From: Bacteroidales bacterium
Lineage (GTDB): Bacteria; Bacteroidota; Bacteroidia; Bacteroidales; UBA932
Assembly (NCBI GenBank): GCA_017938925.1
Contig: JAGBAO010000001.1
Span: 50,817-114,816 of the forward strand
Reading direction: 5' to 3'
Length of the DNA: 64,000 bases
The position numbers were made by a program, and so were the translations under genes. How positions within the stretch are numbered: position 1 is the stretch's first letter; each line of letters starts with the position of its first letter. Positions 15,031 through 49,773 of the stretch are shown here, piece by piece. The notes below the pieces were generated by a model that saw only the letters and a program-made list of their open reading frames with translations, made no database searches and was not told the origin of the DNA.

Positions 15031-17250
15031 TTATTTTACCTTCTGAGCATTATCCTTGTTGAGTGAAGAAAGCAAGATTTTACCATCTCTATATAGAAGG
15101 GTGATTCTATAATTAGTCTTCTTGAATAAACCTGACACAGTCAAAACACAATCCACCTTTTCATGGCTTTCTCCATATATTTTTTCGATTTCATACGCAG
15201 ATATTGTGGTAAAATCTAAAATATGGGCAGTAAATACTTCACTATGATTCTGATTCTCATATCCCTCAAAATCAAAATACTTTTCAACCTCAGAAATATT
15301 AGTAAAGTCAGACGAGAACTTATTGCTTATATACTTCAGAATTTCATTTACTCTTTGTTGCACTTCTTTGAGTTTCCTTTCTTCCAATACTTCTAAGATC
15401 TTCATATCAGACTCTGTTGCACTTTCTTTTAACTGATCAGTTTGTCCACATCGTATTCCCAATTCATATATGTCACTTTTTTTCATATAGCATACAGTAT
15501 TCCCATTATCCGTCAGGATGAGGTATTGTGCATCATATTCACACGCAATCATTCTTTTATATAACGCTTCAAACACCTTTTGTGCCTTTGCTTTGAGATC
15601 ATTCGTTAAAGGTTTTTCATCCCATTTCAATTTCCAATACCGAACTTCTTCTATATCTTCTCTGGACACATCATTTAAAATACAAGAAGGATAAGAATAT
15701 AAAATATGAGCAAGATCTTTCACTCCCGTTACATACAGTTGATGTCGTTTTTGATTCCAGTCTGCTCTTTTGCTTTCAACACTATCCTTGAATACTGCTG
15801 GCACAGATTGTAAAAATTCTTCATATTTACTTGACTGAACTGCCAGGTCTGCCCATGAGTCAAATGTAAAGCAATATAGTATATCCCCTTTTGTATAATA
15901 GCAATAAGTACTATCCACGGAATATGTTAGATCAGTTCGGATTTCATCATAATATTTATCTATATCAACCTCCAGTTTTGCTATATCCAACTCTAGCGCG
16001 CCTATACTACGATTAGTCAAGAATTTATATATATTCTCGCTAGAAGACACATAAAGTGCTTTATTAAGAACATCTGCTACTGTAGTCGCATTTGAGTGTA
16101 TTTGTGCCAAAGATATTTCATTAATCTGCGTCATCTGTTCATCTGTCAAATATATGGTAGATTCAAATTCAGACGGATTTCGGGTTCCCTTTACACATGA
16201 GAAATACTCCTGTGCCTTTTCTGCCCTCCTATGTACTTTCACATAATACAGATTGTACTTATCATCATAGTCTATAATACCAGCATATAACAGATTGTTC
16301 TTCAAGTACGAAAAACTACCACATTGTTTTGTAGCAATCGCTTCAGCAATATCATTAAGTATTTTATCAAAATACTCATCCTTAAAGAAGAGCAATTGCT
16401 TCAGGTATTTATATTTTATGTATGCACTCTGTCCAAATTTCCAAACTCCAAGATCATCCCAATTAATTGCATCTCTCCTCAGAATAAGCGACCATGCCTT
16501 AATACCTAAGTCCAGACTATCTGTACACACATAGATAGACTCTGCATTAAGTTGCTCCTCCGAAATCTCGCCATTCGCAAATTGCGCTGACTTCGTCACT
16601 ATCAACGATGGAGTACCGACAGATGTTTCACCATCAAAAGAACTTATCAACACACTATTAATATACTCTTTTGTCTGACTGCCAAACTTCCAAGTACCCG
16701 TCAGCTCTCCTTTTGGAGTCAAAGTGCCGGAAATTTCTTCCGGAAGATTCTCAGTAACACCTTTAATCTTATAACTGCCAACCAATCTTCCATTATTATA
16801 GTTCACATTAACAAAACATTCATTATGTCCTGCATATGTCTGATTAAACGTACCATGAGGAAGGCCATTACTAAAATTACCATTCAACTTATACGATACC
16901 ACGCTAGTACCACCAGGGACTTCCGTTATATTGATCTTACAACTCAAATTTAAACTTCCATGTAAATTACCATTCAGATGACTTCCTGTCAATCTATATG
17001 TTGAGTTAATGTTAGCTGTAGGTTCAAATATAGTAGGCGTTCTACTTACATCAGCTGATGCAACTATCGTAAATGGGCCATTATAGTATGATGTCCCATC
17101 ATCTCTGAGAGAATATGAATAAGTATAATCACCTTGTAAAGGCCACAATGTATCAATATATAGCGGCCTTGTTGCTTGTTTCTGCTCTTGAGCAGCAATT
17201 GTACATACTGTTAAAAATAACGTACAAATAAATAACAATTTAGTTTTCAT
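15031..17250 (-). CDS. Secreted MORN-like repeat protein (cassette 1 cargo)
   Basis: A 739-residue protein in AT-rich DNA, with a signal peptide (MKTKLLFICTLFLTVCTIAA). Residues about 85-200 contain imperfect glycine/aspartate-asparagine repeats of the form LNGNLHGSLN, LNGNFSNGLPHGTF, YNNGRLVGSYKIKG, TPKGELTGTWKFG, which look like MORN or toxin_YwqK-type beta-hairpin repeats. The remaining 500 residues are helical and charged, with no motif I recognise. It lies 16 bases after the 310-residue gene and is probably co-transcribed from the RNA-element promoter. Likely periplasmic. Function unknown. Confidence 0.7.
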   Translation of the reverse strand: MKTKLLFICTLFLTVCTIAAQEQKQATRPLYIDTLWPLQGDYTYSYSLRDDGTSYYNGPFTIVASADVSRTPTIFEPTANINSTYRLTGSHLNGNLHGSLNLSCKINITEVPGGTSVVSYKLNGNFSNGLPHGTFNQTYAGHNECFVNVNYNNGRLVGSYKIKGVTENLPEEISGTLTPKGELTGTWKFGSQTKEYINSVLISSFDGETSVGTPSLIVTKSAQFANGEISEEQLNAESIYVCTDSLDLGIKAWSLILRRDAINWDDLGVWKFGQSAYIKYKYLKQLLFFKDEYFDKILNDIAEAIATKQCGSFSYLKNNLLYAGIIDYDDKYNLYYVKVHRRAEKAQEYFSCVKGTRNPSEFESTIYLTDEQMTQINEISLAQIHSNATTVADVLNKALYVSSSENIYKFLTNRSIGALELDIAKLEVDIDKYYDEIRTDLTYSVDSTYCYYTKGDILYCFTFDSWADLAVQSSKYEEFLQSVPAVFKDSVESKRADWNQKRHQLYVTGVKDLAHILYSYPSCILNDVSREDIEEVRYWKLKWDEKPLTNDLKAKAQKVFEALYKRMIACEYDAQYLILTDNGNTVCYMKKSDIYELGIRCGQTDQLKESATESDMKILEVLEERKLKEVQQRVNEILKYISNKFSSDFTNISEVEKYFDFEGYENQNHSEVFTAHILDFTTISAYEIEKIYGESHEKVDCVLTVSGLFKKTNYRITLLYRDGKILLSSLNKDNAQKVK

Positions 17251-17265
17251 AATAATAGGTATTAA

Positions 17266-18198
17266 TTAGTATACTAGAAGTTTTTGCGCAAGCGTAAAGA
17301 TTTGCTTTAAGATGCTGTCGTTTTTCAAGAATGGCAGTTCAGCTAAGTCAGATTTGTTTATATCAAAGCCAGCACCGTACGCAGAGTAATCCTGCATATT
17401 TAACAACAACGACAGATTACCTCTGTGAATTTTCCCGACATACCAAAGAAGCCTATCAAAGGCATCATATGTAGCTGATGTACCTATAATATTCCTTAAT
17501 GAATCAATCGCATTAATATATCTCGCAATATCAGTAACCTTGATGGCAGGCATGTTTTCAAGGAATAAATAATTACACAACTTAGGATACATTTCTTTTA
17601 CAACAGAATCATAGATTGGAAATTGAAAATCTGTCAAGAAATATGCATACTTGCTGATCAGTGATATCGCAGTCCCCTTTGATTTAGCATCTTTCCCTAT
17701 TCCATAACCCTCTGAAAACAAATTACTCAATCTATTATCTGAGCCATCCTTATATAGTTTCAAATGTCCTGAAACAAAATCGAATATTGGAGAATGTCGG
17801 TGCCCATTGTTCAAATATTCCAAGAACTTATATTTAAGGGTATTAAGACTTCCGCCAGATAACAGAAATAAGACTTCTGCGAGTTCTCCTATACCGTAAT
17901 AACGCCGAGTCATCTGAGTCGAATACATATTATCTATAAGTGTCAGTTGCAGAACAATATGATCCAACAAGTTGTCACTATCAACACTTGCATTTGTAAA
18001 AGTTGAATAAATAATTCTCTTATTAATTGAATATGCTGAGCCATCGTTATTATTATTGTCAAGTCGTTGAATCTCTGACAGAATTCGACGGATCTCCTCC
18101 AATCGGACTTCCTTAACTTTTTGTTTGAAGACAGTTCCATCATCCTCAAAAAAATAATCCAAATCCTTGAAGAGGTTCTGCAATTTTGTTTGGCTCAT
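17266..18198 (-). CDS. Unknown protein with HhH-glycosylase-like motif (cassette 1 cargo)
   Basis: I use the ATG at 18198 (product MSQTKLQNLFKDLDYFF, 310 residues); an in-frame ATG at 18264 would read through the conserved 3' end of the RNA element. The protein is soluble and helical. The segment KGTAISLISKYAYFL (174-188) followed by FPIYDS (193-198) recalls the lysine and aspartate spacing of OGG/HhH-GPD-like DNA glycosylases, where a K..(T/A)..SKhLhFL...FPIhDs pattern is common. This is suggestive only. Directly follows the RNA element; the secreted protein gene follows. Confidence 0.6.
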   Translation of the reverse strand: MSQTKLQNLFKDLDYFFEDDGTVFKQKVKEVRLEEIRRILSEIQRLDNNNNDGSAYSINKRIIYSTFTNASVDSDNLLDHIVLQLTLIDNMYSTQMTRRYYGIGELAEVLFLLSGGSLNTLKYKFLEYLNNGHRHSPIFDFVSGHLKLYKDGSDNRLSNLFSEGYGIGKDAKSKGTAISLISKYAYFLTDFQFPIYDSVVKEMYPKLCNYLFLENMPAIKVTDIARYINAIDSLRNIIGTSATYDAFDRLLWYVGKIHRGNLSLLLNMQDYSAYGAGFDINKSDLAELPFLKNDSILKQIFTLAQKLLVY

Positions 18199-18245
18199 AT
18201 CTGAGTTTTTTGCCCCCGTCCCTGAGAATAAAAGGGTTATAGATG

Positions 18246-18453
18246 CAGAAAGCGTGGGACGCATTGCTCATTTCAGCTGATAGGCCCTAGGAACTGCCTC
18301 GGAATTGAAATAAGCAACAGCCCACGCTGATACCGACCCTGAGAGGGGTACAGATACAGGTGAGGTTGTCTGCATATCCTCATTCCGTAATGAATTTCCT
18401 AGGTTCATCAGCGAGGGTAAAGCAAAACACTCTCTGTGTTTCAGTATTATGTC
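18246..18453 (-). ncRNA. Structured RNA element, copy 1 (kinase-cassette RNA)
   Basis: On minus, a -7 box TACATTTG (complement of 18457-18464) precedes about 208 bases that align with 47242-47444. Elements in transcript order: hairpin AAACAC-AGAGA-GTGTTT; strand CCTAGGAA (complement of 18396-18403); identical CTCACCTGTATCTGTACCC; closing helix P1 AGCGTGGG/CCCACGCT (18321-18328 with 18251-18258); inner helix TTGCTTATTTCA/TGAAATGAGCAA; and in the P1 loop TTCCTAGG (complement of 18286-18293), which pairs with the outer CCTAGGAA to make a pseudoknot. Copy 2 keeps this pairing with changed bases. It could be a free RNA or a long leader of the cargo genes, whose first ATG is 48 bases beyond. I recognise no named RNA family. 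Confidence 0.8.
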
Positions 18454-18542
18454 TTGCAAATGTAACAAAACATAGTAACAAAACCAACGGCCTGAACAGT
18501 ATTTGGGGCTGTTGCTGTTTTACGGTGGCAAATGTATCAAAA

Positions 18543-18565
18543 AAGACAACCCGAACGGATTGTCT
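18543..18565 (-). terminator. Kinase 1 terminator
   Basis: On minus, AGACAATCCGTTCGGGTTGTCT followed by TTTTT forms a hairpin just after the kinase stop at 18579. The same hairpin follows kinase 2, so the kinase unit is transcriptionally separated from the RNA element. Confidence 0.8.
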
Positions 18566-18578
18566 TTACTTGTCTTTG

Positions 18579-19769
18579 CTATTTGAAAGGTCTGTAAGTC
18601 TCTTCCTTTGCTATAAGACTGTTATAAAATTGTATTTCCTCGAGTGATAATCCCGACCTCGCATACGAGGGTTTTGCCCCGATGGTTTTTATGACTCTCT
18701 CATAATATTGCTGCTGGATAGTTGTGTAATAAGACACGAAGCCGCTTATAAGCTGCTGATCAGAAGTAGCATTCTGAAAACTGTCCCAGATTGCCGGAAG
18801 TCTCTTCATTGCAGTTTCCATTTCCTGAAATCCGAACTCCATATAAGGAATTGACTTCAATCGTTCCTCCAAGCCGGCATAGATTGCATGCACCTGAGAA
18901 TCAATGGCTGCATATACAGAGTCGCATAGTTCCTGTCTCTCCTTTTCTGCAGTTTTGAACTCCCGGAACTCACTTATTTCATCGACGACATTGCCCGCCA
19001 TCCAGATCAGAAATACAAGGCATGCGACAGCCAAAGCTGCATAGACGGGACGATATCTGTGAGATATCGCCTTTATCACCTGATCGACATCCGCATACCT
19101 GTCATCCCTGTTCTGCTCAGTACATCTTTTAATTATGCGGGAATATCTCGTCCCAAGAATATCCTTAAGGAGGAGTCCAAGAGAATATATATCGCTTCTG
19201 GAATCAACACTTTCATGCCTGAGAAGTTCCGGAGAGGCATATTCCGCAGTACAGCCCATGGTTCTGGCGAGATAGTAAGCATCGGTGTCGGAGAGTCCGA
19301 AATCCAGAAGTTTGACAGAATTGTCACTGCGACTTATCAATATATTCTCCGGCTTCAGATCGTTGTGAATCACTCCTTTGCGATGGAGATAGCCGACAGC
19401 ATCCATCAACTGGCCGGCAATCCTTCTGCGAGAGGATATGGATGGATTCTCCCGGAGAAACTCCGTCAGATTTCTTCCATCCACGTATTCCATCACTATG
19501 CACGGACCGACAACAGTGTTTTCCTCAAAGGTGAATACATTGGCAATATGCGGATGATCGAGGCCTATCGAGATGTCATATTCCCTTCTTATCATCGCCA
19601 TCATGCGTCCGGAATCATCACAAGCAGTCTTCAGAATGAAATACTTCCCTGCCTTGCTTACCTTGTAAAGCCGGCTTATGGAACTTTCAGCAATCAATAC
19701 AGGATCGGCATACCCGGAGTCATAAGAAACGGGGGCGTGCACAGTAAGAAGCTGGGAATTCTCGCTCAT
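18579..19769 (-). CDS. Membrane-anchored Ser/Thr protein kinase, cassette 1
   Basis: 396 residues from the ATG at 19769, which lies about 40 bases after the -7 box; a longer in-frame start at 19814 falls inside the promoter. Kinase features: K47 in FILKT, HNDLKPEN at 135-142 (HND in place of HRD), DFG at 156-158, YASPELL near 177-183. A single membrane helix (about 243-260) follows, then a roughly 135-residue extracytoplasmic helical domain ending ETYRPFK. No PASTA repeats. Kinase 2 (47564-48730) is paralogous over the full length. The gene is divergent from the HTH-like gene and followed by terminator, RNA element and cargo. It may sense envelope signals and phosphorylate the HTH protein or cargo; this is inference. 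Confidence 0.88.
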   Translation of the reverse strand: MSENSQLLTVHAPVSYDSGYADPVLIAESSISRLYKVSKAGKYFILKTACDDSGRMMAMIRREYDISIGLDHPHIANVFTFEENTVVGPCIVMEYVDGRNLTEFLRENPSISSRRRIAGQLMDAVGYLHRKGVIHNDLKPENILISRSDNSVKLLDFGLSDTDAYYLARTMGCTAEYASPELLRHESVDSRSDIYSLGLLLKDILGTRYSRIIKRCTEQNRDDRYADVDQVIKAISHRYRPVYAALAVACLVFLIWMAGNVVDEISEFREFKTAEKERQELCDSVYAAIDSQVHAIYAGLEERLKSIPYMEFGFQEMETAMKRLPAIWDSFQNATSDQQLISGFVSYYTTIQQQYYERVIKTIGAKPSYARSGLSLEEIQFYNSLIAKEETYRPFK

Positions 19770-19811
19770 TTTTGTCTTTTTATGTCTTATCAGGCTATGG
19801 CATTGCGACCT

Positions 19812-19832
19812 CAAATATAATGATTATTTTTG
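19812..19832. promoter_or_regulatory. Overlapping divergent promoters, cassette 1
   Basis: TATATTTG on minus (complement of 19812-19819) serves the kinase and TATTTTTG on plus (19825-19832) serves the HTH-like gene. Only 5 bases separate the two -7 boxes, so RNA polymerase should occupy one or the other. The same arrangement with nearly identical bases is at 48774-48794. The plus ATG at 19840 begins 7 bases after the box, so that mRNA is nearly leaderless. Confidence 0.7.
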
Positions 19833-19839
19833 TCTCGTT

Positions 19840-20430
19840 ATGAACATAAAGACAGATATTCCACAGATAGCACTGCTCAGAGAGCGGATTGAGAAGTCAA
19901 TAGATTTTCCCTTGAACACCCACGGAGATTTCCTGCGTCTTTCAGCAGGAATCGAATTCACGTTGCGCGAACATATGTCAGAAAGCACTCTGGAGAGGCT
20001 GTGGGGATATTCTACAAGACGGTATGACACCGTGTCTGTCAGAACGCTTAATGTACTCTGCCGTTTCATAGGCATACACAGTTGGGAGCAGTTCTGCGAA
20101 TCACTCTCGTCTGAGGGGCACGAGTCCGAACTGTTTACCGGCAGTACAATCAACGCTGCTGATCTGGCAGTCGGGACACGCATCAGGATAGGCTGGCTTC
20201 CTGACCGAATGTGCACTGTCCGCTATCTGGGAGACAACAGGTTCGTCGCAGAAGAGACACAGAACTCCACAATGCAGTCTGGAGACACATTCTCATGTCT
20301 GCAGTTCCAGAAAGGACGCGAATTGCATCTTGACGACTTCCGCAAGGCCGATCCGTCAGAAAGATTCCGCTATGTCGTGGGAATAAACAGCGGCCTCACG
20401 ACTCTGGAAGTCATTCCTCCTGCTAAATAG
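19840..20430 (+). CDS. HTH-like regulatory protein, cassette 1
   Basis: A 196-residue protein (MNIKTDIPQIALLRERIEKS) closely paralogous to 48802-49383. Residues 47-80 (SESTLERLWGYSTRRYDTVS, then VRTLNVLCRFIGI) look like a helix-turn-helix, the N-terminal half being all-helical. The C-terminal half (about 115-190) is beta-rich with GTRIRIGWLPDRMCTVRYLG and NSTMQSGDTFSC conserved between the copies. I do not know a named family. Its divergent pairing with the kinase across a shared promoter suggests that it regulates the cassette or is a kinase substrate. Confidence 0.75.
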   Translation: MNIKTDIPQIALLRERIEKSIDFPLNTHGDFLRLSAGIEFTLREHMSESTLERLWGYSTRRYDTVSVRTLNVLCRFIGIHSWEQFCESLSSEGHESELFTGSTINAADLAVGTRIRIGWLPDRMCTVRYLGDNRFVAEETQNSTMQSGDTFSCLQFQKGRELHLDDFRKADPSERFRYVVGINSGLTTLEVIPPAK

Positions 20431-43861: not shown

Positions 43862-44731
43862 ATGACAAAGACATCTATCATGAATGTACAGGGAATCGAA
43901 ATAGCCCTGACTACAATCAACGAAGAAGACTTTATCTGTATCACAGATATTGTAAAAGCCAAGGGTGGAGACGCCCGTGCTGCCGACATCATAAAAAACT
44001 GGATCAGGAACCGTAGCACCATTGAATTCCTTGGTACTTGGGAAACCATATATAACCCAAATTTTAAAGTGGTCGAATTTGACCACTTTAGAAAAGAGGC
44101 TGGATTACCAACCTTTACAATGAGTGTCAGCAACTGGATTGAAAAGACAGGAGCCATCGGAATCGTATCAAAAGCCGGACGATATGGTGGAACCTATGCA
44201 CATAAAGACATTGCATTTGAGTTCTGCTCCGCAATCAGTCCAATGTTCAAGCTCTATGTCATCAAGGAGTACCAGCGCCTCGTAGAACTCGAACGAAGCG
44301 AACTCGCCCTATCCTGGAACGTAAAGCGCCTCTTATCCAAAGCTAACTACCACATCCACACCGATGCCATCAAGAACGTCATCCTGCCAAAACTCAACAT
44401 CAGCCAGATGAAACAAGGTCTCGTTTATGCAAGCGAAGCAGATCTTCTGAACATGGTTCTCTTCGGCTGCACAGCCAAGCAATGGCAGGAAGCGAATCCT
44501 GAACTTGCAAAGACGATGAACATCAGAGACACGGCTACAATCAATCAGCTGATAGTTCTCTCCAATATAGAATCCCTGAATGCGGAGCTTATCAAGCAAG
44601 AAGTATCAAAAGAAGATAGATTCACCATCCTGCATCGCACTGCAGAAGAACAGCTGGCAGTTCTGATATCCAGAAATGCAGAACAGAACTTCGCAAAGCT
44701 CGCATCAGATGATCCGAAACTCATAGGATAG
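43862..44731 (+). CDS. KilA-N domain DNA-binding protein
   Basis: A 289-residue protein. Residues about 10-150 form a KilA-N domain (DFICITDIVKAKGGDAR, IIKNWIRNRSTIEFLGTWE, and GRYGGTYAHKDIAFEFCSAI), then a C-terminal helical region with a long coiled segment. KilA-N is typical of phages, prophages and mobile elements, and of Bacteroidota accessory loci. -7 box TATATTTG at 43828-43835. A T-tailed hairpin follows. It points away from the cassette-2 cargo and may belong to the mobile element rather than to the cassette. Confidence 0.85.
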   Translation: MTKTSIMNVQGIEIALTTINEEDFICITDIVKAKGGDARAADIIKNWIRNRSTIEFLGTWETIYNPNFKVVEFDHFRKEAGLPTFTMSVSNWIEKTGAIGIVSKAGRYGGTYAHKDIAFEFCSAISPMFKLYVIKEYQRLVELERSELALSWNVKRLLSKANYHIHTDAIKNVILPKLNISQMKQGLVYASEADLLNMVLFGCTAKQWQEANPELAKTMNIRDTATINQLIVLSNIESLNAELIKQEVSKEDRFTILHRTAEEQLAVLISRNAEQNFAKLASDDPKLIG

Positions 44732-44892: not shown

Positions 44893-46458
44893 TTATACAA
44901 AATTCAAAGAATTCCGTACAACATCAGCAAGGTTATCAAGTGAACTGCCAGACATAGTCGTAATATCTTCACAGAATATGACCGGAATATCCGTTCCGTT
45001 AAGTATGTAATGACCATTATTGAAAGTCTCCGGATTTACCCATCTGCCTTTACCGAAAATCAGGTTCTTGCAATAATCGGTGAAGAACAGTATTGCCTTC
45101 GGCTTCAATAAAGCTATAGTATCGTATGTCAATTCAAGTTGTTCTCTTATAAAATCCTGATTTACTTTCATCAAGGCATCTCTGTCATTCTCCCTCACAT
45201 AGAGAAGATTCATGTGAGCATACGACTTCCCGCATCTGCCTGCAAAAGACTCCAAGGCCTTGAAATATGGTGGTGCATCATCACGCTGATAGAAACTACC
45301 GTATAAGAGCGAATGCTTATTGTTGCTTTCGATAAAGCGTTGATCATCCTCCGGGCTATATGATGGATTGACTCCTACGAAAAGAATGCAGTCTTCAACT
45401 CCATCTGCAGCAAATATCGGACGACGTTCTATATATTCTGATGGTACTGAATGCCTGTATTTAAGCCATATTCTGTGCAAAGCACTACAGATTCTGTTAT
45501 TTGCATCGAGGTCAAAGAAGATGGGGGCGTCTTCACTGTCAACACTTTCTGCGCCATCGAAGTGTGAAACTGTAGATATTTGGTATTCAACGTGCTGTAC
45601 CTCATTTTTCTGTTCTACACTATACTTATCTTTTTCGCCAGCCAGCCATTCTTCAAACTCACATTTTCTTTTATGCACTTTATAAAAGTAAAAGCTCCAT
45701 AATGCTATTATCAGAAATATCGAACACACCAAGGCTATTATAAGAACAGTGTCCTCATACCAAGTGTAATCATAGTATTCTATAGTCTTAAATATCCACT
45801 TCTCAGAATAAACAGCTGTTTCTTCTTTGCGAATCTGCCAAATGAAAAATATGACCATAAGCAATCCTCCTGTACCCAAGAGTGAGAACCTACGGTATTT
45901 GCTGTTTTTAACTTTAACTTCTGCCCTCTTTAGTTCTATTTCCTTTTCCAACAAGATTTCTCCATAAACAGGAATATGGGGGTCATTCGGATTAATACAT
46001 CTGAGTTCAAACAGGCACTGGGAAAATTTTTGATATAAAGCTTCATTATACTGATTGTGGATTCTGCCCTCTTCGCCATCATCATGCCTTTTGATAGATT
46101 TCATCTGAATTGACAGTTGTCCCAAGAGTTCATTCAAGCCATGTGATGTCTTAGGTATCGAAATAGCCATCAGTTTGTCAACATTTTCCAAAACAGCGGA
46201 ATTCAACATATTCAATTCTGCCCTTCTCGCTCTATTATCCTCTTCAATCTGGTGTTGTTCCGCTATCCTCAACCTTCTTTCTTCACGTTCTGCAGCTTCC
46301 TGCTTGATGCGCATCCTGTCCTCATGTCGCCTCTGAACATCACGATTCACTCTTCGATAAGGGGTTGACCAACTGTCTCCGAAGACTGCATTAGATATTA
46401 CTTTGGCTGTATTTTTACCTAATTCCCGACCAAAAGACTTACCAAATGAACTAGCCAT
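44893..46458 (-). CDS. Membrane-anchored uracil-DNA-glycosylase-like protein (cassette 2 cargo)
   Basis: A 521-residue protein in AT-rich DNA. Residues about 40-90 are a highly charged coiled coil (RRHEDRMRIKQEAAEREERR), two membrane helices are near 195-215 and 240-262, and the cytosolic C-terminal domain has the UDG-superfamily pattern: motif 1 FVGVNPS (360-366), AHMNLLYVREND (about 414-425), and LLKPKAILFF (about 450-460). The usual C-terminal histidine motif is replaced by VIFCEDITTMSG, so catalysis is doubtful. Two bases after the 251-residue gene, one transcript. A fusion of a UDG-like fold to membrane helices is unusual. Confidence 0.75.
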   Translation of the reverse strand: MASSFGKSFGRELGKNTAKVISNAVFGDSWSTPYRRVNRDVQRRHEDRMRIKQEAAEREERRLRIAEQHQIEEDNRARRAELNMLNSAVLENVDKLMAISIPKTSHGLNELLGQLSIQMKSIKRHDDGEEGRIHNQYNEALYQKFSQCLFELRCINPNDPHIPVYGEILLEKEIELKRAEVKVKNSKYRRFSLLGTGGLLMVIFFIWQIRKEETAVYSEKWIFKTIEYYDYTWYEDTVLIIALVCSIFLIIALWSFYFYKVHKRKCEFEEWLAGEKDKYSVEQKNEVQHVEYQISTVSHFDGAESVDSEDAPIFFDLDANNRICSALHRIWLKYRHSVPSEYIERRPIFAADGVEDCILFVGVNPSYSPEDDQRFIESNNKHSLLYGSFYQRDDAPPYFKALESFAGRCGKSYAHMNLLYVRENDRDALMKVNQDFIREQLELTYDTIALLKPKAILFFTDYCKNLIFGKGRWVNPETFNNGHYILNGTDIPVIFCEDITTMSGSSLDNLADVVRNSLNFV

Positions 46459-46460
46459 AA

Positions 46461-47216
46461 TTACAAATATTTACTTATTGATTTAACAGTTTTTGAAAAG
46501 TCATATAGTGCCACGAAGTCTGATTCTGACAATCTCTGTTCTGAACCAAGATTCCGAGAATGCGAATACATGACTGTTACAGTACCTTTCAGGCGGCACA
46601 CACCGTCCTGCGGACGATATATAATTTCTCTCTGAGCAAGTTCATCCTGACGGAATCCCTTGATTATTCTTATATCCAGTCCCCTGTTTTTGAGAGAATC
46701 TGGCAGATCATCTTCTGATACTTTCCGAAAGTCATATCCCATCCACACACAGTCTTCCGATGCTCCCCAGAACGGGTATGTAGATTTGTTGGCAACGATC
46801 AAAAGAGAGGGAGCGATACGTTCTATTTCAGTTTGAGCAACCCTAATTACATTAGCTATGGCTGCTTCATTTCCCCTGATATTATCCAAAAGTGTCTTTT
46901 GCTCTTTTTCGTAAAAAGGGAAAAGATCGAGATAGCCGCATTGAGACATCAAATCCTCTGGAATGAAGCTTCCAAGTTTAGAAAAATACGGATGTCCATC
47001 TCCATTAAATGGCTTTGGGTATGAACTTGTCGGAACGTATTGGCCGTTGACCGGCACACTTGGATTGATGCCGGTGATGAGGACATTCCCATTTACTGAT
47101 TCATCATTGTCGCAAGACACAAAACCTGCTTTTGCAAAATAGGAATTTTCTGGAAATGAAGATATTACCTCCAGATAATCTTGATAGAGATCCATGACAT
47201 TCTTCTGCCTCCTCAT
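46461..47216 (-). CDS. Uracil-DNA-glycosylase-like protein (cassette 2 cargo)
   Basis: A 251-residue soluble protein with the UDG-superfamily motif 1 as GINPS (49-53), YLDLFPFYEKEQ (around 95-106) as the next conserved strand, and IAPSLLIVANKSTYPFWG further on. A histidine (MYSHSRNLG) near the end could be the catalytic one. No iron-sulphur cysteines. Starts 26 bases after the RNA element, so it is directly under its control if the RNA is a leader. Paired with the membrane-anchored UDG-like gene downstream. Confidence 0.72.
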   Translation of the reverse strand: MRRQKNVMDLYQDYLEVISSFPENSYFAKAGFVSCDNDESVNGNVLITGINPSVPVNGQYVPTSSYPKPFNGDGHPYFSKLGSFIPEDLMSQCGYLDLFPFYEKEQKTLLDNIRGNEAAIANVIRVAQTEIERIAPSLLIVANKSTYPFWGASEDCVWMGYDFRKVSEDDLPDSLKNRGLDIRIIKGFRQDELAQREIIYRPQDGVCRLKGTVTVMYSHSRNLGSEQRLSESDFVALYDFSKTVKSISKYL

Positions 47217-47241
47217 CCCTGGAGATTTACTGTTAAAAATA

Positions 47242-47444
47242 CAGAAAGCGTGGGACGATCGCCTAAATCATCTGGTAGGCCCTGAGATTGCCTTGGAATT
47301 GAAATAAGCAACAGCCCACGCTGATATCCATATTCCCTTTCGGGTACAGATACAGGTGAGGAAGTCAGCCAATTCTCATTCCAATTGAATTTCTCAGGTT
47401 CACCAGAGAGAAAAAGCTTACACTTTCCGTGTAAATATTATGTC
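47242..47444 (-). ncRNA. Structured RNA element, copy 2 (kinase-cassette RNA)
   Basis: About 203 bases aligning with copy 1 (18246-18453). -7 box TACATTTG at the complement of 47448-47455 and TTTG at the complement of 47473-47476. Elements: ACAC-GGAAA-GTGT hairpin; CCTGAGA (complement of 47392-47398) pairing with TCTCAGG (complement of 47281-47287) inside the P1 loop; the CTCACCTGTATCTGTACCC box; a GAAA-capped CCC/GGG hairpin; and P1 AGCGTGGG/CCCACGCT (47315-47322 with 47247-47254). The pseudoknot bases differ from copy 1 on both strands but still pair. P1 is followed by TTTCTGTATTTTT, so it may act as a terminator, making this a possible switch before the UDG-like cargo. Confidence 0.8.
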
Positions 47445-47530
47445 CTACAAATGTAGGAATAATTTTTCAATACAAAAGCCTTCCACAATGGGCTGTCGCT
47501 TAAATTATTGATGATGCAAATCTAAACAAA

Positions 47531-47563: not shown

Positions 47564-48730
47564 TTATTTCTCGTAAGGTCTGTATGGCTTTTGGTCTCTC
47601 ATTAATCCATAGTAGAAAGTCAACTCTTCGTATGAAAGCCTGCTTTCAGAAAGCTTTGGTATAGTTTCCAGTTTTGACTTAAACTGCTCGGTGTACTTTG
47701 ATGACAAAGTTGTATAAATTGAACCTAGTGCTGCCTGAATTTCTATGTCATCCGTCTTGAGCAGAGTGGCATCCCTGATACTCCAGTGCTCCTGCCACAA
47801 GCTATTAGCCTCAATACAAGCAAACTCCCAGAATCTGATTTCATCCATCTTGTTCAGAAAACGGTCTGTCGCAGCTTTCAATGCGTCATCCATATCTTCT
47901 GACAACTCCTTTAACTCATCTGCTCTGTTATCAGGCTGTTGCGGGATGAAAAAATAAGGTGTCAAGGTAGCAAGGAAAAGCAAGACTGCGGCAGCAACCA
48001 ATGGAATGGAATGCGTTCTCTTGAATGCTTTCTGCATCTGCTCGACATTTGTATATCGCTTTGCTGCATCCTTACGCAGAGCCTTGCCTGAAATATACCT
48101 ATACTTCCCTCCAAAGATATCCCTCATCAGAAGGCCAAGAGAATATATATCACTTCTGGCATCCAACGGAGCCGAATGAGCCAGAAGTTCCGGCGAAGCG
48201 TATTCCGGAGTGCAGCCCGGAGTCTTTGACAGATAATGCGCATCGTCATCGGACAATCCGAAGTCAACCAGTTTCACAGTATTGTCAGAGTGGGTTATCA
48301 GTATGTTTTCAGGTTTCAGATCGTTGTGGATGATACTTTTCCTATGCAGATACGCTACTGCTTCCAACAACTGGCTGAAGACCCTTCTACGCTGCTGGAT
48401 GGGTGGATTTTCCTTAAGGAATTCACTCAGCGTGCGCCCATCGACATACTCCATTATAATTCCCGGTCCGACAACTGTATCCTGCTCATAGGTAAACACA
48501 TTAACGACATACGGACAATCAAGGCCGATGGATATTTCATACTCTCTTCGTACCAGGGCATTCAATCTTCCGGTATTGTCCTTAGATGTCTTGATGATAA
48601 AATACTTGCCGTCCCTGCTGACCCTGTACAGACGTGTCATGGAATTTTCTGATAGCAGAACAGGATCAGAATATATGCTGTTTCCTGCTATTGGCTGAAA
48701 CTCAGGAACCAGTTGCGAATCATTACTCAT
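47564..48730 (-). CDS. Membrane-anchored Ser/Thr protein kinase, cassette 2
   Basis: 388 residues, paralogous to 18579-19769 over the entire length. Kinase lobe with FIIKT lysine, HNDLKPEN, DFG (KLVDFGLSDDD) and EYASPELLAHS; membrane helix near 245-262 (IPLVAAAVLLFLATLTPYFF); extracytoplasmic helical domain ending PYRPYEK. Start at 48730, about 37 bases after the TATATTTG box. Shared order with its sister: HTH-like gene divergent, RNA element and cargo downstream. The divergent sequence between the sisters, with conserved motifs, argues for a working kinase in both. Confidence 0.88.
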   Translation of the reverse strand: MSNDSQLVPEFQPIAGNSIYSDPVLLSENSMTRLYRVSRDGKYFIIKTSKDNTGRLNALVRREYEISIGLDCPYVVNVFTYEQDTVVGPGIIMEYVDGRTLSEFLKENPPIQQRRRVFSQLLEAVAYLHRKSIIHNDLKPENILITHSDNTVKLVDFGLSDDDAHYLSKTPGCTPEYASPELLAHSAPLDARSDIYSLGLLMRDIFGGKYRYISGKALRKDAAKRYTNVEQMQKAFKRTHSIPLVAAAVLLFLATLTPYFFIPQQPDNRADELKELSEDMDDALKAATDRFLNKMDEIRFWEFACIEANSLWQEHWSIRDATLLKTDDIEIQAALGSIYTTLSSKYTEQFKSKLETIPKLSESRLSYEELTFYYGLMRDQKPYRPYEK

Positions 48731-48801: not shown

Positions 48802-49383
48802 ATGAATATAAAGTCAGATATACCACAGATATCCGTTCTAAGGCAGCAGGTCGAACAGAAAGCCGGTTTTCCTCTTGACACACATGGGGATTTTCTGACT
48901 TTGTCGGCGAAGATAGAGACATGTCTCCGCGAACACATATCGGAAAGTACATTGGAACGGATTTGGGGCTATTCCACAAGGCATTATGACACAGTGTCAT
49001 CAAGAAGTCTTAATGTGCTTAGCAGATTTGTCGGGTTTCATGGTTGGGAGGAGTTCTGCTGTTCCTTATCTCCCGGCAGTACCGCCTCTGAACTATTTGA
49101 CGGAGATTCCATAGATGTTTCAAAACTACAGCCAGGTGCGCGCATAAGACTTGGGTGGGCTCCTGACAGAGTTTGCATTGTCAGATATTTAGGAGACTTC
49201 CAATTTATTGCAGAAGTCACAGAAAACTCCACCATGCAACCAGGGGACACATTTTGTTGCAGACAGTTTCAGAAAAACAGGACGGCTCACTTGGACAATT
49301 TCTGCAAGGTAGGAACCGAAAAGAGATATACATACATCATTGGCAAAAACACTGGGATTACCATTCTCGAAGAAACTGACTGA
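48802..49383 (+). CDS. HTH-like regulatory protein, cassette 2
   Basis: 193 residues, paralogous to 19840-20430 (MNIKSDIPQISVLRQQVEQK; SESTLERIWGYSTRHYDTVS; RIRLGWAPDRVCIVRYLGDF). Helical N-terminal half with a putative helix-turn-helix, beta-rich C-terminal half. It differs from its sister by many substitutions but no gaps near the core, so both copies are under selection. Confidence 0.75.
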   Translation: MNIKSDIPQISVLRQQVEQKAGFPLDTHGDFLTLSAKIETCLREHISESTLERIWGYSTRHYDTVSSRSLNVLSRFVGFHGWEEFCCSLSPGSTASELFDGDSIDVSKLQPGARIRLGWAPDRVCIVRYLGDFQFIAEVTENSTMQPGDTFCCRQFQKNRTAHLDNFCKVGTEKRYTYIIGKNTGITILEETD

Positions 49384-49560
49384 CTTTCGAGCATAGCGAA
49401 GGCGCATCTGACTGGGGGCAAGATGGATCTTTGATCCCCTTTGCTTGCACGGTTTTAAGGCCTTCCTGAAAACTGCAAGTCCCTTCCACGAGGAAAGGGA
49501 TTTAGGAATGTGGTAACGTAAAAGGCGGGCACTCGCCCGTACACAAAAAGAGAACCATCG
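49384..49560. other. Non-coding segment between cassette 2 and tRNA-Leu
   Basis: No gene seen. Contains hairpins GGGGATCAAAGATCCCC-like (around 49427-49441), TCCCTTCC-ACGA-GGAAAGGGA (about 49481-49501), and GGGCACTCGCCC (49528-49539). A terminator hairpin for tRNA-Leu, AGAGAACCAGCGATGGTTCTCT on minus, is at 49550-49571. Confidence 0.5.
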
Positions 49561-49575
49561 CTGGTTCTCTATTTG

Positions 49576-49657
49576 TGCGGGCGAAGGGAATCGAACCCAT
49601 ACGCCTCTCGGCACCAGATCCTAAGTCTGGCTTGTCTACCAATTTCAACACGCCCGC
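49576..49657 (-). tRNA. tRNA-Leu (anticodon TAG)
   Basis: 82 bases without encoded CCA. Acceptor strands GCGGGCG and CGCCCGC, D-arm with TTGGTAGA, anticodon loop in CAGACTTAGGATCTG giving TAG, long variable arm TGCCGAGAGGCGT, and T-loop GGTTCGATTCC. Class II tRNA as expected for Leu. Confidence 0.93.
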
Positions 49658-49697
49658 TCGCTGTATAAAAAGAAAAGCAGATCGGAATCTGCTTTCT

Positions 49698-49773
49698 TGG
49701 TAGCGGGAGGAGGACTCGAACCTCCGGCCTCCGGGTTATGAGCCCGACGAGCTACCAACTGCTCTATCCCGCG
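49698..49773 (-). tRNA. Initiator tRNA-fMet (anticodon CAT)
   Basis: 76 bases with encoded CCA. The first base C faces A at 72 (C-A mismatch), and the anticodon stem has three G-C pairs (GGGCTCATAACCC), both marks of the initiator. T-loop GTTCGAGTCC. Promoter upstream: TATATTTG at the complement of 49785-49792 and TTTG at the complement of 49813-49816, 20 bases apart. Confidence 0.94.

What the first reader, a model, noticed from the sequence alone, without database searches (positions are those of the whole stretch)
15031..20430. Duplicated kinase / HTH / RNA / variable-cargo cassette, copy 1
The order HTH-like gene (19840-20430, +), shared promoter, membrane Ser/Thr kinase (18579-19769, -), kinase terminator, about 208-base RNA (18246-18453), then two cargo genes (17266-18198, 15031-17250) repeats at 43.9-49.4 kb with the same parts and different cargo. 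Keeping control parts constant while changing cargo is the pattern of an exchangeable effector module, as in many defence systems. I know of no described system with this order.
Basis: partly seen in the sequence, partly recalled or inferred. Interest (0 to 1): 0.93.

Follow-up and report, generated by a model that had tools for sequence, protein, structure and literature searches.

The report
Swappable-cargo cassette with new leader RNA
A gut-type bacterium carries two copies of a gene cassette in which a DNA-binding-like protein, a kinase and a large folded RNA that is not in the public RNA catalogue stay the same while the genes behind the RNA are exchanged; the RNA looks like a widespread gene-control element of the Bacteroidota.

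Summary
Two loci 29 kb apart share a divergent HTH gene (63% identity), a membrane-type kinase (46%) and a ~210-base RNA (77%), followed by unrelated cargo. I found ten loci in this order, with several cargo types. In 40 genomes chosen because they carry the RNA, 18 of 37 HTH relatives lie within 3 kb of an RNA copy, all on its 5' side.

The RNA is the larger finding. No Rfam family covers it. Covariance models find it in 94 of 344 genomes of the order and 52 of 395 of the phylum; the 40 chosen carriers hold 367 copies. On 106 copies, 39 of 45 pairs change on both sides, a pseudoknot included. It has its own promoter box and precedes a gene on the same strand in 91 of 100 and 49 of 49 copies with a scorable gene, so it reads as a ~240-base leader. 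In about half the copies an upstream element, antisense to the RNA core and covarying with it, suggests a two-promoter folding switch.

The defence reading is not shown: of the window's five cargo-side proteins, one has a clear defence-family match. Signal, ligand and mechanism are inferred.

The parts
19840..20430 (+). HTH protein, copy 1 (196 aa)
19812..19819 (-). -7 box TATATTTG in the HTH/kinase gap, copy 1
   Evidence: block present in the 9 cassette loci printed, with small changes
18579..19769 (-). Ser/Thr kinase with a hydrophobic, probably membrane-spanning segment and C-terminal domain, copy 1
   Evidence: Pkinase E=3.3e-34; 46% identical to copy 2; membrane segment read from the sequence
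18539..18567 (-). kinase terminator, copy 1
   Evidence: hairpin followed by T-run, read from the sequence
18529..18536 (-). upstream -7 box (Pup) TACATTTG, copy 1
18506..18516 (-). element E, AGCAACAGCCC, antisense to RNA core GGGCUGUUGCU, copy 1
18457..18464 (-). inner -7 box (Pin) TACATTTG, copy 1
18217..18453 (-). leader RNA, copy 1 (covariance-model core 18241-18453, helix P7 to about 18217)
   Evidence: R2 148.2 bits; P7 CGUCCC/GGGACG
17266..18198 (-). cargo 1a, 310 aa, no known family; start ATG at 18198
   Evidence: ORF; no Pfam, PADLOC, PHROG or PDB sequence match, NCBIfam only an insignificant one (E=0.11); 88% identical homologue at the same place in L126
15031..17250 (-). cargo 1b, 739 aa, signal peptide by eye, no known family
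   Evidence: 31% homologue behind the RNA in L023
48802..49383 (+). HTH protein, copy 2 (193 aa)
47564..48730 (-). Ser/Thr kinase with a hydrophobic, probably membrane-spanning segment, copy 2
   Evidence: Pkinase E=1.6e-34
47517..47524 (-). upstream -7 box (Pup) TAGATTTG, copy 2
47490..47501 (-). element E, AAGCGACAGCCC, pairs with the core through one G-U, copy 2
47448..47455 (-). inner -7 box (Pin) TACATTTG, copy 2
47213..47444 (-). leader RNA, copy 2 (model core 47237-47444, P7 to about 47213)
   Evidence: R2 170 bits; P7 UCGUCCC/GGGAUGA
46461..47216 (-). cargo 2a, 251 aa, no family match (a GINPS motif recalls uracil-DNA-glycosylase-like proteins, from memory only)
44893..46458 (-). cargo 2b, 521 aa, two hydrophobic segments by eye, no family match above a cut-off
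   Evidence: marginal PADLOC RTas346 E=0.0014 and NCBIfam AmaP E=0.0005 below its cut-off; N-terminal part 37% identical over 83 columns to the gene behind the RNA in L050

Best explanation
The cassette is a regulated expression unit with exchangeable output. Shown by sequence: a pseudoknotted ~240-base leader RNA with its own promoter box sits directly before the cargo, and an HTH + kinase pair lies on its 5' side, the HTH usually transcribed away from it. Inferred: the kinase senses an envelope or infection signal and modifies the HTH protein, which acts on the promoters of the region; the leader RNA then sets cargo expression in cis, its last helix (P7) closing just before the start codon. 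Inferred with less weight: transcripts that start at the upstream promoter carry element E, which pairs with the RNA core and breaks helices P5/P6, whereas transcripts from the inner promoter lack E and fold into the conserved structure, so promoter choice decides the fold.
For: RNA structure: 92.9% of cells paired, 39 of 45 pairs with changes on both sides, covariation 0.646 against 0.229 shuffled and at most 0.080 slid; the pseudoknot, which is not in the model used for alignment, is 83-93% paired with UA, CG and UG types. P7 pairing score 15.7 over 148 copies against 13.0 +/- 0.16 with partners permuted. Leader position: first downstream ORF on the same strand in 91 of 100 and 49 of 49 copies that have one, 78 of those 91 and 44 of those 49 starting no more than 130 bases away; upstream ORF on the same strand only in 64 of 97 and 32 of 58. 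Own promoter: TAnnTTTG from 80 bases before to 15 bases into the RNA in 124 of 156 copies, 8 in an equal downstream stretch, 9.9 shuffled. HTH-RNA link: 18 of 37 HTH genes within 3 kb, all 5' of the RNA, 15 divergent; chance expectation 0.8 for 2.5 kb on both sides. Kinase within 250 bases of 29 of 37 HTH genes. Element E.
Against: Nothing here is measured in cells. 19 of 37 HTH genes show no RNA and most RNA copies lack this HTH, so each can occur without the other. About half of the copies tested have no element E at score 8 (63 of 132 have it; 61 of 127 lack it). The inner promoter box could make the upstream one redundant, and a strict upstream box was seen in only 25 of 66 copies with E. 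No HTH operator or kinase target is known. Downstream genes in the window's family mostly lack an export-type N-terminus, unlike elsewhere, so one shared signal is not obvious.
Confidence: 0.6

Rival explanations
1. The RNA is a metabolite riboswitch or protein-binding leader of general use that the HTH/kinase units merely picked up; HTH and kinase regulate something else.
For: The RNA is far more numerous than the HTH: 367 copies against 37 HTH genes in the 40 genomes.
Against: HTH on the 5' side of the RNA in 18 of 18 cases and a preserved order in ten loci. A single metabolite would normally mean related downstream genes; these are very diverse.
Confidence: 0.25
2. The RNA acts in trans as a stand-alone noncoding RNA and the gene behind it is incidental or its target.
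For: Own promoter box in 124 of 156 copies; closed fold; T-rich 3' end in many distant copies; two tandem copies in L023 and L095.
Against: Same-strand downstream gene in nearly all copies at a short distance; P7 reaches close to the start codon.
Confidence: 0.15
3. The unit is an anti-phage defence system in which the RNA or kinase holds a toxic cargo inactive until infection.
For: GC-poor stretches (0.36-0.46 in 2-kb bins against about 0.51); KilA-N PDC-S22 (409 bits) beside copy 2; a cargo elsewhere weakly nuclease-like (PDDEXK_9 E=2.4e-4, below its cut-off) and, behind RNA copies without the cassette, proteins that match Orf5, HEC-06 and SspE models (L025, L034).
Against: Cargo scanned with PADLOC came from 5 of the 10 loci and gave only one marginal match; cargo includes OmpA, SPFH, LRR and ion-channel proteins; outside the family the RNA mostly precedes proteins with an export-type N-terminus.
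Confidence: 0.2
4. Element E is a DNA site near the inner promoter, recognised by an RNA-guided or ordinary regulator, rather than part of a longer transcript.
For: E lies 55-64 bases from the inner box in 42 of 61 copies (quartiles 55-61), tighter than its distance to the RNA (quartiles 65-84).
Against: A strict promoter box stands directly before E in 25 of 66 copies (control windows 1 and 5; shuffled 1.3), so E probably begins a transcript; deviations from perfect pairing in consensus-core copies are 41 G-U against 24 mismatches, as expected for RNA-RNA pairing.
Confidence: 0.2

Closest known systems
cis-regulatory leader RNAs and riboswitches
   Same: Structured, covarying, own promoter box, directly before a gene on the same strand, helix near the start codon
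   Different: No Rfam match over the core; several copies per genome before unrelated genes; antisense element next to a second promoter box in about half the copies or fewer
DUF805 and DUF805b RNA (Rfam RF03081, RF02914)
   Same: Typed by Rfam as cis-regulatory; a match begins 14-36 bases 3' of this RNA's model core in L047, L048, L056, L063, L066, so it can overlap the P7 region (the L047 match is below its gathering score, as is the DUF805b match in L063)
   Different: 35-68 bases; the core of the new RNA does not match either model
Flavo-1 RNA (RF01705)
   Same: Structured RNA of Bacteroidetes without known function (PMC2864571 and PMC9723704, passages and one section seen)
   Different: No Flavo-1 match in the 33 distinct sources scanned (window and 32 loci, seven of them from outside the order)
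Kinase-bearing anti-phage systems (PD-T4-6, MADS mad6, Stk2)
   Same: Protein kinase domain matches these models
   Different: Best matches cover the kinase domain only; I did not search the window for their other parts beyond the nine proteins scanned
Integron or defence-island cassettes
   Same: Constant element followed by variable cargo
   Different: The constant element is a promoter plus leader RNA; integrase and attachment sites were not searched for (recombinase-like ORFs were seen by eye near some relatives, see Noticed in passing)

Membership tests
Rfam RNA families (4227 models, release 15) | score at or above gathering threshold over the RNA core | tested here: not met
   window whole; both copies at E up to 10, best sense-strand match over the core 20.2 bits against a gathering score of 99; 32 further loci at E up to 0.5 or 0.1: none over the core
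cis-regulatory leader RNA | conserved structure with compensatory changes | tested here: met
cis-regulatory leader RNA | directly 5' of a gene on the same strand | tested here: met
   91 of 100 and 49 of 49 copies with a downstream ORF; three RNA copies are in both sets; 3 of 103 and 11 of 60 copies had no scorable ORF
cis-regulatory leader RNA | changes expression of the gene behind it | not testable with these tools
   needs transcript mapping and reporters
riboswitch | binds a specific small ligand; downstream genes share a pathway | tested here: inconclusive
   ligand not testable; downstream genes diverse, enriched for export-type N-termini outside the own family
PD-T4-6 / MADS / Stk2 kinase defence | whole-protein match to the kinase model | tested here: inconclusive
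   best match covers residues 46-208 of 396; many kinase models match alike
PD-T4-6 / MADS / Stk2 kinase defence | protection against phage | not testable with these tools
   experiment
XRE / lambda-repressor-like HTH | repressor-type helical N-domain | tested here: inconclusive
type III toxin-antitoxin | ToxN/AbiF-like nuclease behind a short repeat RNA (definition recalled) | tested here: not met
   no such Pfam or PADLOC match in the cargo scanned; RNA is about 240 bases and not a short repeat (by eye)

The most novel reading that the evidence does not exclude
The leader belongs to a large, unlisted class of Bacteroidota control RNAs whose fold is set by promoter choice: a second promoter adds a short 5' element antisense to the RNA's own core, and a nearby HTH/membrane-kinase pair selects the promoter, so that an outside signal is turned into an RNA fold that switches exchangeable interaction or defence genes.
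Probability: 0.2. Interest if true: 0.93.

Novelty: new variant of a known kind. Interest (0 to 1): 0.8.

Why it matters
A structured RNA found in 94 of 344 sampled genomes of this order, with 367 copies in 40 chosen carriers, is absent from Rfam. It marks promoters and probably regulated genes in gut bacteria, many of them exported-type proteins of unknown role, and in one family it heads exchangeable cargo beside a kinase pair. If the two-promoter switch is real, it would be a gene-control principle in which the start site decides the fold of the leader. It also makes many uncharacterised Bacteroidota operons testable as one regulon.

Tried and rejected
Coding reading of the RNA region: open frames cross the RNA in some relatives (for example 85 aa in L025), but the closely related copies L010 and L011 differ by a one-base insertion in the core, and the helices covary; rejected.

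Single-stranded DNA (attC-like) reading: many standard pairs are G-U, which would be C-A on the other strand; RNA preferred.

Pairing GCGUGGG/CCCACGC, my first idea: the sequence allows it, but GCGUGGG can also pair locally (P6, by eye) and CCC with a downstream strand (P7); I did not count it and do not claim it.

Phage or plasmid origin: no match of the copy-2 RNA in phages or plasmids and no exact 20-base core in viral contigs. The tools warn that near relatives may be left out.

Start of cargo 1a at an ATG inside the RNA (18264, listed) rejected in favour of 18198.

Literature: searches listed no paper on this RNA or cassette that I could recognise; the library lacks most subscription papers and I saw mainly listings. 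Seen: passages of PMC2864571, PMC8040213, PMC7366714, PMC9723704 and section 19 of the last; no whole text. PMC9723704 reports 64 structured 5' regions in one Flavobacterium, some without Rfam match; whether this RNA is among them I could not check.

Limits of the counts. The 40 genomes were chosen because they had an RNA match (39 by R1, G228 by BLAST), so copy numbers are not population means. Only the best 150 or so places were listed. Of the 27 HTH genes without a listed RNA I fetched all surroundings; the last eight HTH-RNA neighbours come from a search of these short stretches at a looser threshold (weakest E=9e-4), while the expectation used 2.5 kb and whole-genome counts at E<=1e-4. 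Alignment A7 was fitted to model R1, which favours its helices; the pseudoknot, P7 and E were not in R1. One search kept 148 copies (those with a recognisable CCACGC-type motif and enough flank) and a few of its best pairings lie 76-101 bases away and are probably noise. One search used 132 copies, after dropping those without a recognisable core or enough flank. ORF calls are mechanical, without a gene finder; export-type N-termini were scored by a simple hydrophobicity rule.
Full report
What was checked. HTH proteins are 63% identical, kinases 46%, RNA stretches 77% over 217 bases. The cargo of the two copies is unrelated (no BLASTP match between copies below E=0.6) and has no family match above a curated cut-off; the KilA-N gene beside copy 2 does (Pfam KilA-N, PADLOC PDC-S22). 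Both copies lie in GC-poor stretches (0.36-0.46 in 2-kb bins against about 0.51).

The cassette recurs. The own genome has five HTH relatives, the window's two included. An exact 20-base stretch of the RNA core, searched in genomes of 84,980 species, gave 59 stretches of DNA, some from the same genome, all with names that I read as Bacteroidota, among them Bacteroides fragilis S82, B. faecis MAJ27, Alistipes, Rikenella, Odoribacter, Dysgonomonas and Taibaiella; model R1 matched all 59. Of 60 RNA copies tabulated there (L181, which is L023 again, left out), 7 have HTH and kinase in the window's order (L126, L142, L143, L168, L175, L178, L179); with the two window copies and L023 this makes ten loci. 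They are not all independent: L126 is the orthologue of copy 1, and L142, L178, L179 are close relatives; in L168 the HTH is cut by the contig end; in L143 another gene stands between kinase and RNA. The first cargo gene differs: cargo 1a (copy 1, L126), cargo 2a (copy 2), a 322-aa protein then WG repeats (L175), a PD-(D/E)XK match below its cut-off (L143), a 118-119-aa protein (in L168 with an insignificant ubiquitin match, and followed by an OmpA protein; L178 and L179 alike by eye), a zinc-ribbon-like protein then SPFH (L142), a cargo 1b relative (L023).

HTH, kinase and RNA are linked outside this family too. In 40 genomes chosen because they carry the RNA, the HTH profile found 37 genes in 19 genomes. 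Ten lie within 2.5 kb of an RNA copy listed; I fetched the surroundings of the 27 others and found an RNA near 8 more (two of the 27 have under 350 bases on their 5' side). So 18 of 37 HTH genes have an RNA within 3 kb; in all 18 the HTH is on the 5' side of the RNA, 15 divergent and 3 on the same strand. Two more distant HTH-like genes in Bacteroides-type loci outside this set (L136, L147) lie on the 3' side. By density about 0.8 would be expected within 2.5 kb on either side. A kinase of the same kind is within 250 bases of 29 of the 37 HTH genes, in divergent, convergent or tandem order. The other 19 HTH genes have no detected RNA, and most RNA copies have no HTH of this family.

The RNA is a large unlisted family. 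No Rfam family covers its core in the window or in 32 further loci, seven of them from outside the order; in the two copies at permissive settings nothing came near a gathering score. BLAST found it in 15 of 299 genomes of the family (one match, L021, spurious); model R1 in 94 of 344 genomes of the order at E<=0.001; model R2 in 52 of 395 of the phylum at E<=1e-4; 367 copies in the 40 chosen genomes, 8 in the own genome, up to 34 in one.

Structure. On 106 copies (105 distinct) the fold has 92.9% paired cells, 39 of 45 pairs with changes on both sides and a covariation score of 0.646, against 0.229 when partners are shuffled and at most 0.080 when slid. This includes a pseudoknot that was not in the model used for alignment. 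A further helix P7, outside the model, joins the bases just before ACGCUUU to a strand mostly 28-44 bases after the CCACGC motif: mean score 15.7 over 148 copies against 13.0 with permuted partners. P7 puts the 3' strand of the closing helix into its loop and ends close to the start codon, so the whole RNA is about 240 bases.

It is a leader. The first downstream ORF is on the same strand in 91 of 100 and 49 of 49 copies that have one; 78 of the 91 and 44 of the 49 begin no more than 130 bases from the model end, median 50 and 47 (three RNA copies are in both sets). Upstream ORFs are on the same strand in 64 of 97 and 32 of 58. A promoter box TAnnTTTG stands between 80 bases before and 15 bases into the RNA in 124 of 156 copies, against 8 in an equal downstream stretch; this consensus is given for Bacteroides in PMC7366714, which also gives a median 5' UTR of 32 bases (passages). 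Downstream proteins have an export-type N-terminus in 55 of 72 and 28 of 49 copies against 85 of 239 and 77 of 264 background ORFs, but only in 4 of 16 in the window's own family. So the RNA is a general leader of mostly surface or secreted proteins, and this family has put it before other cargo.

An unexpected element. In about half the copies (63 of 132 at score 8) a stretch E (AGCAACAGCCC) roughly 50-90 bases before the RNA is the reverse complement of the RNA core GGGCUGUUGCU. Where the core differs, E differs with it: 17 of 63 variant-core copies reach the threshold, against 6.0 on average and 13 at most in 200 rounds with swapped upstream regions; for consensus cores 46 of 69 against 29.9 and at most 41. 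An earlier, simpler count gave 51 of 113 upstream against 24-33 with swapped regions and 2 of 110 downstream. Deviations in consensus-core copies are 41 G-U against 24 mismatches. A strict promoter box stands directly before E in 25 of 66 copies (control windows 1 and 5), and E lies 55-61 bases (quartiles) before the inner box, against 65-84 before the RNA. The simplest reading is two tandem promoters: the longer transcript begins with E, which can pair with the core and break helices P5/P6; the shorter lacks E. This competition is inferred, not shown. A DNA-level role of E is the rival.

How it most likely works. Shown: order, promoter boxes, leader position, conserved fold, linkage. Inferred: HTH as DNA-binding regulator of the promoters (the AF2 model has a helical N-domain that resembles repressor-type HTH chains only weakly), the kinase as membrane sensor, the leader as the switch. 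Defence is possible, not shown: cargo from 5 of the 10 loci was scanned with PADLOC and gave one marginal hit, though some RNA copies without the cassette precede relatives of Orf5, HEC-06 and SspE (L025, L034).

Verdict.

Noticed in passing
window 43862-44731 (+): KilA-N protein beside copy 2, matching PADLOC PDC-S22 (409 bits) and PHROG 2657 (transcriptional regulator), convergent to the cargo.
   Followed up: partly
window 49383-49773: Copy 2 ends next to tRNA-Leu and tRNA-Met genes and lies in a GC-poor stretch: a possible insertion hot spot.
   Followed up: no
L047, L048, L056, L063, L066: Rfam DUF805 / DUF805b RNA matches begin 14-36 bases 3' of the model core of the new RNA, so some genes have a composite leader (the DUF805b matches in L047 and L063 are below the gathering score).
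   Followed up: no
L023 7653-8198; L095 3096-3669; L072 2795-3190: Two RNA copies in tandem (the second copy in L072 scores only 32 bits).
   Followed up: no
L168, L175, L178, L179, L198, L203: Genes for small repeat proteins (insignificant ubiquitin match in L168) behind the RNA, with OmpA (L168), an ion channel (L198) or a TerB-like protein (L198, by eye) near; function unknown.
   Followed up: partly
L149, L194, L201, L202: ORFs that look like tyrosine recombinases (by eye) lie near RNA copies, in L194 directly before one.
   Followed up: no
genomes G313, G344, G367, G470: Several RNA copies lie within a few hundred bases of a contig start in these fragmented genomes, as if flanked by repeats.
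   Followed up: no
L029 3372-8273: RNA followed by a weakly vWA-like and a Tubulin_2 protein (165 bits), an operon type worth a look.
   Followed up: no
L025, L032, L034: In the same genus the RNA sits among genes for relatives of Orf5/HEC-06/SspE (L025, L034) and proteins with a WGDG motif (L025, L032; by eye).
   Followed up: partly
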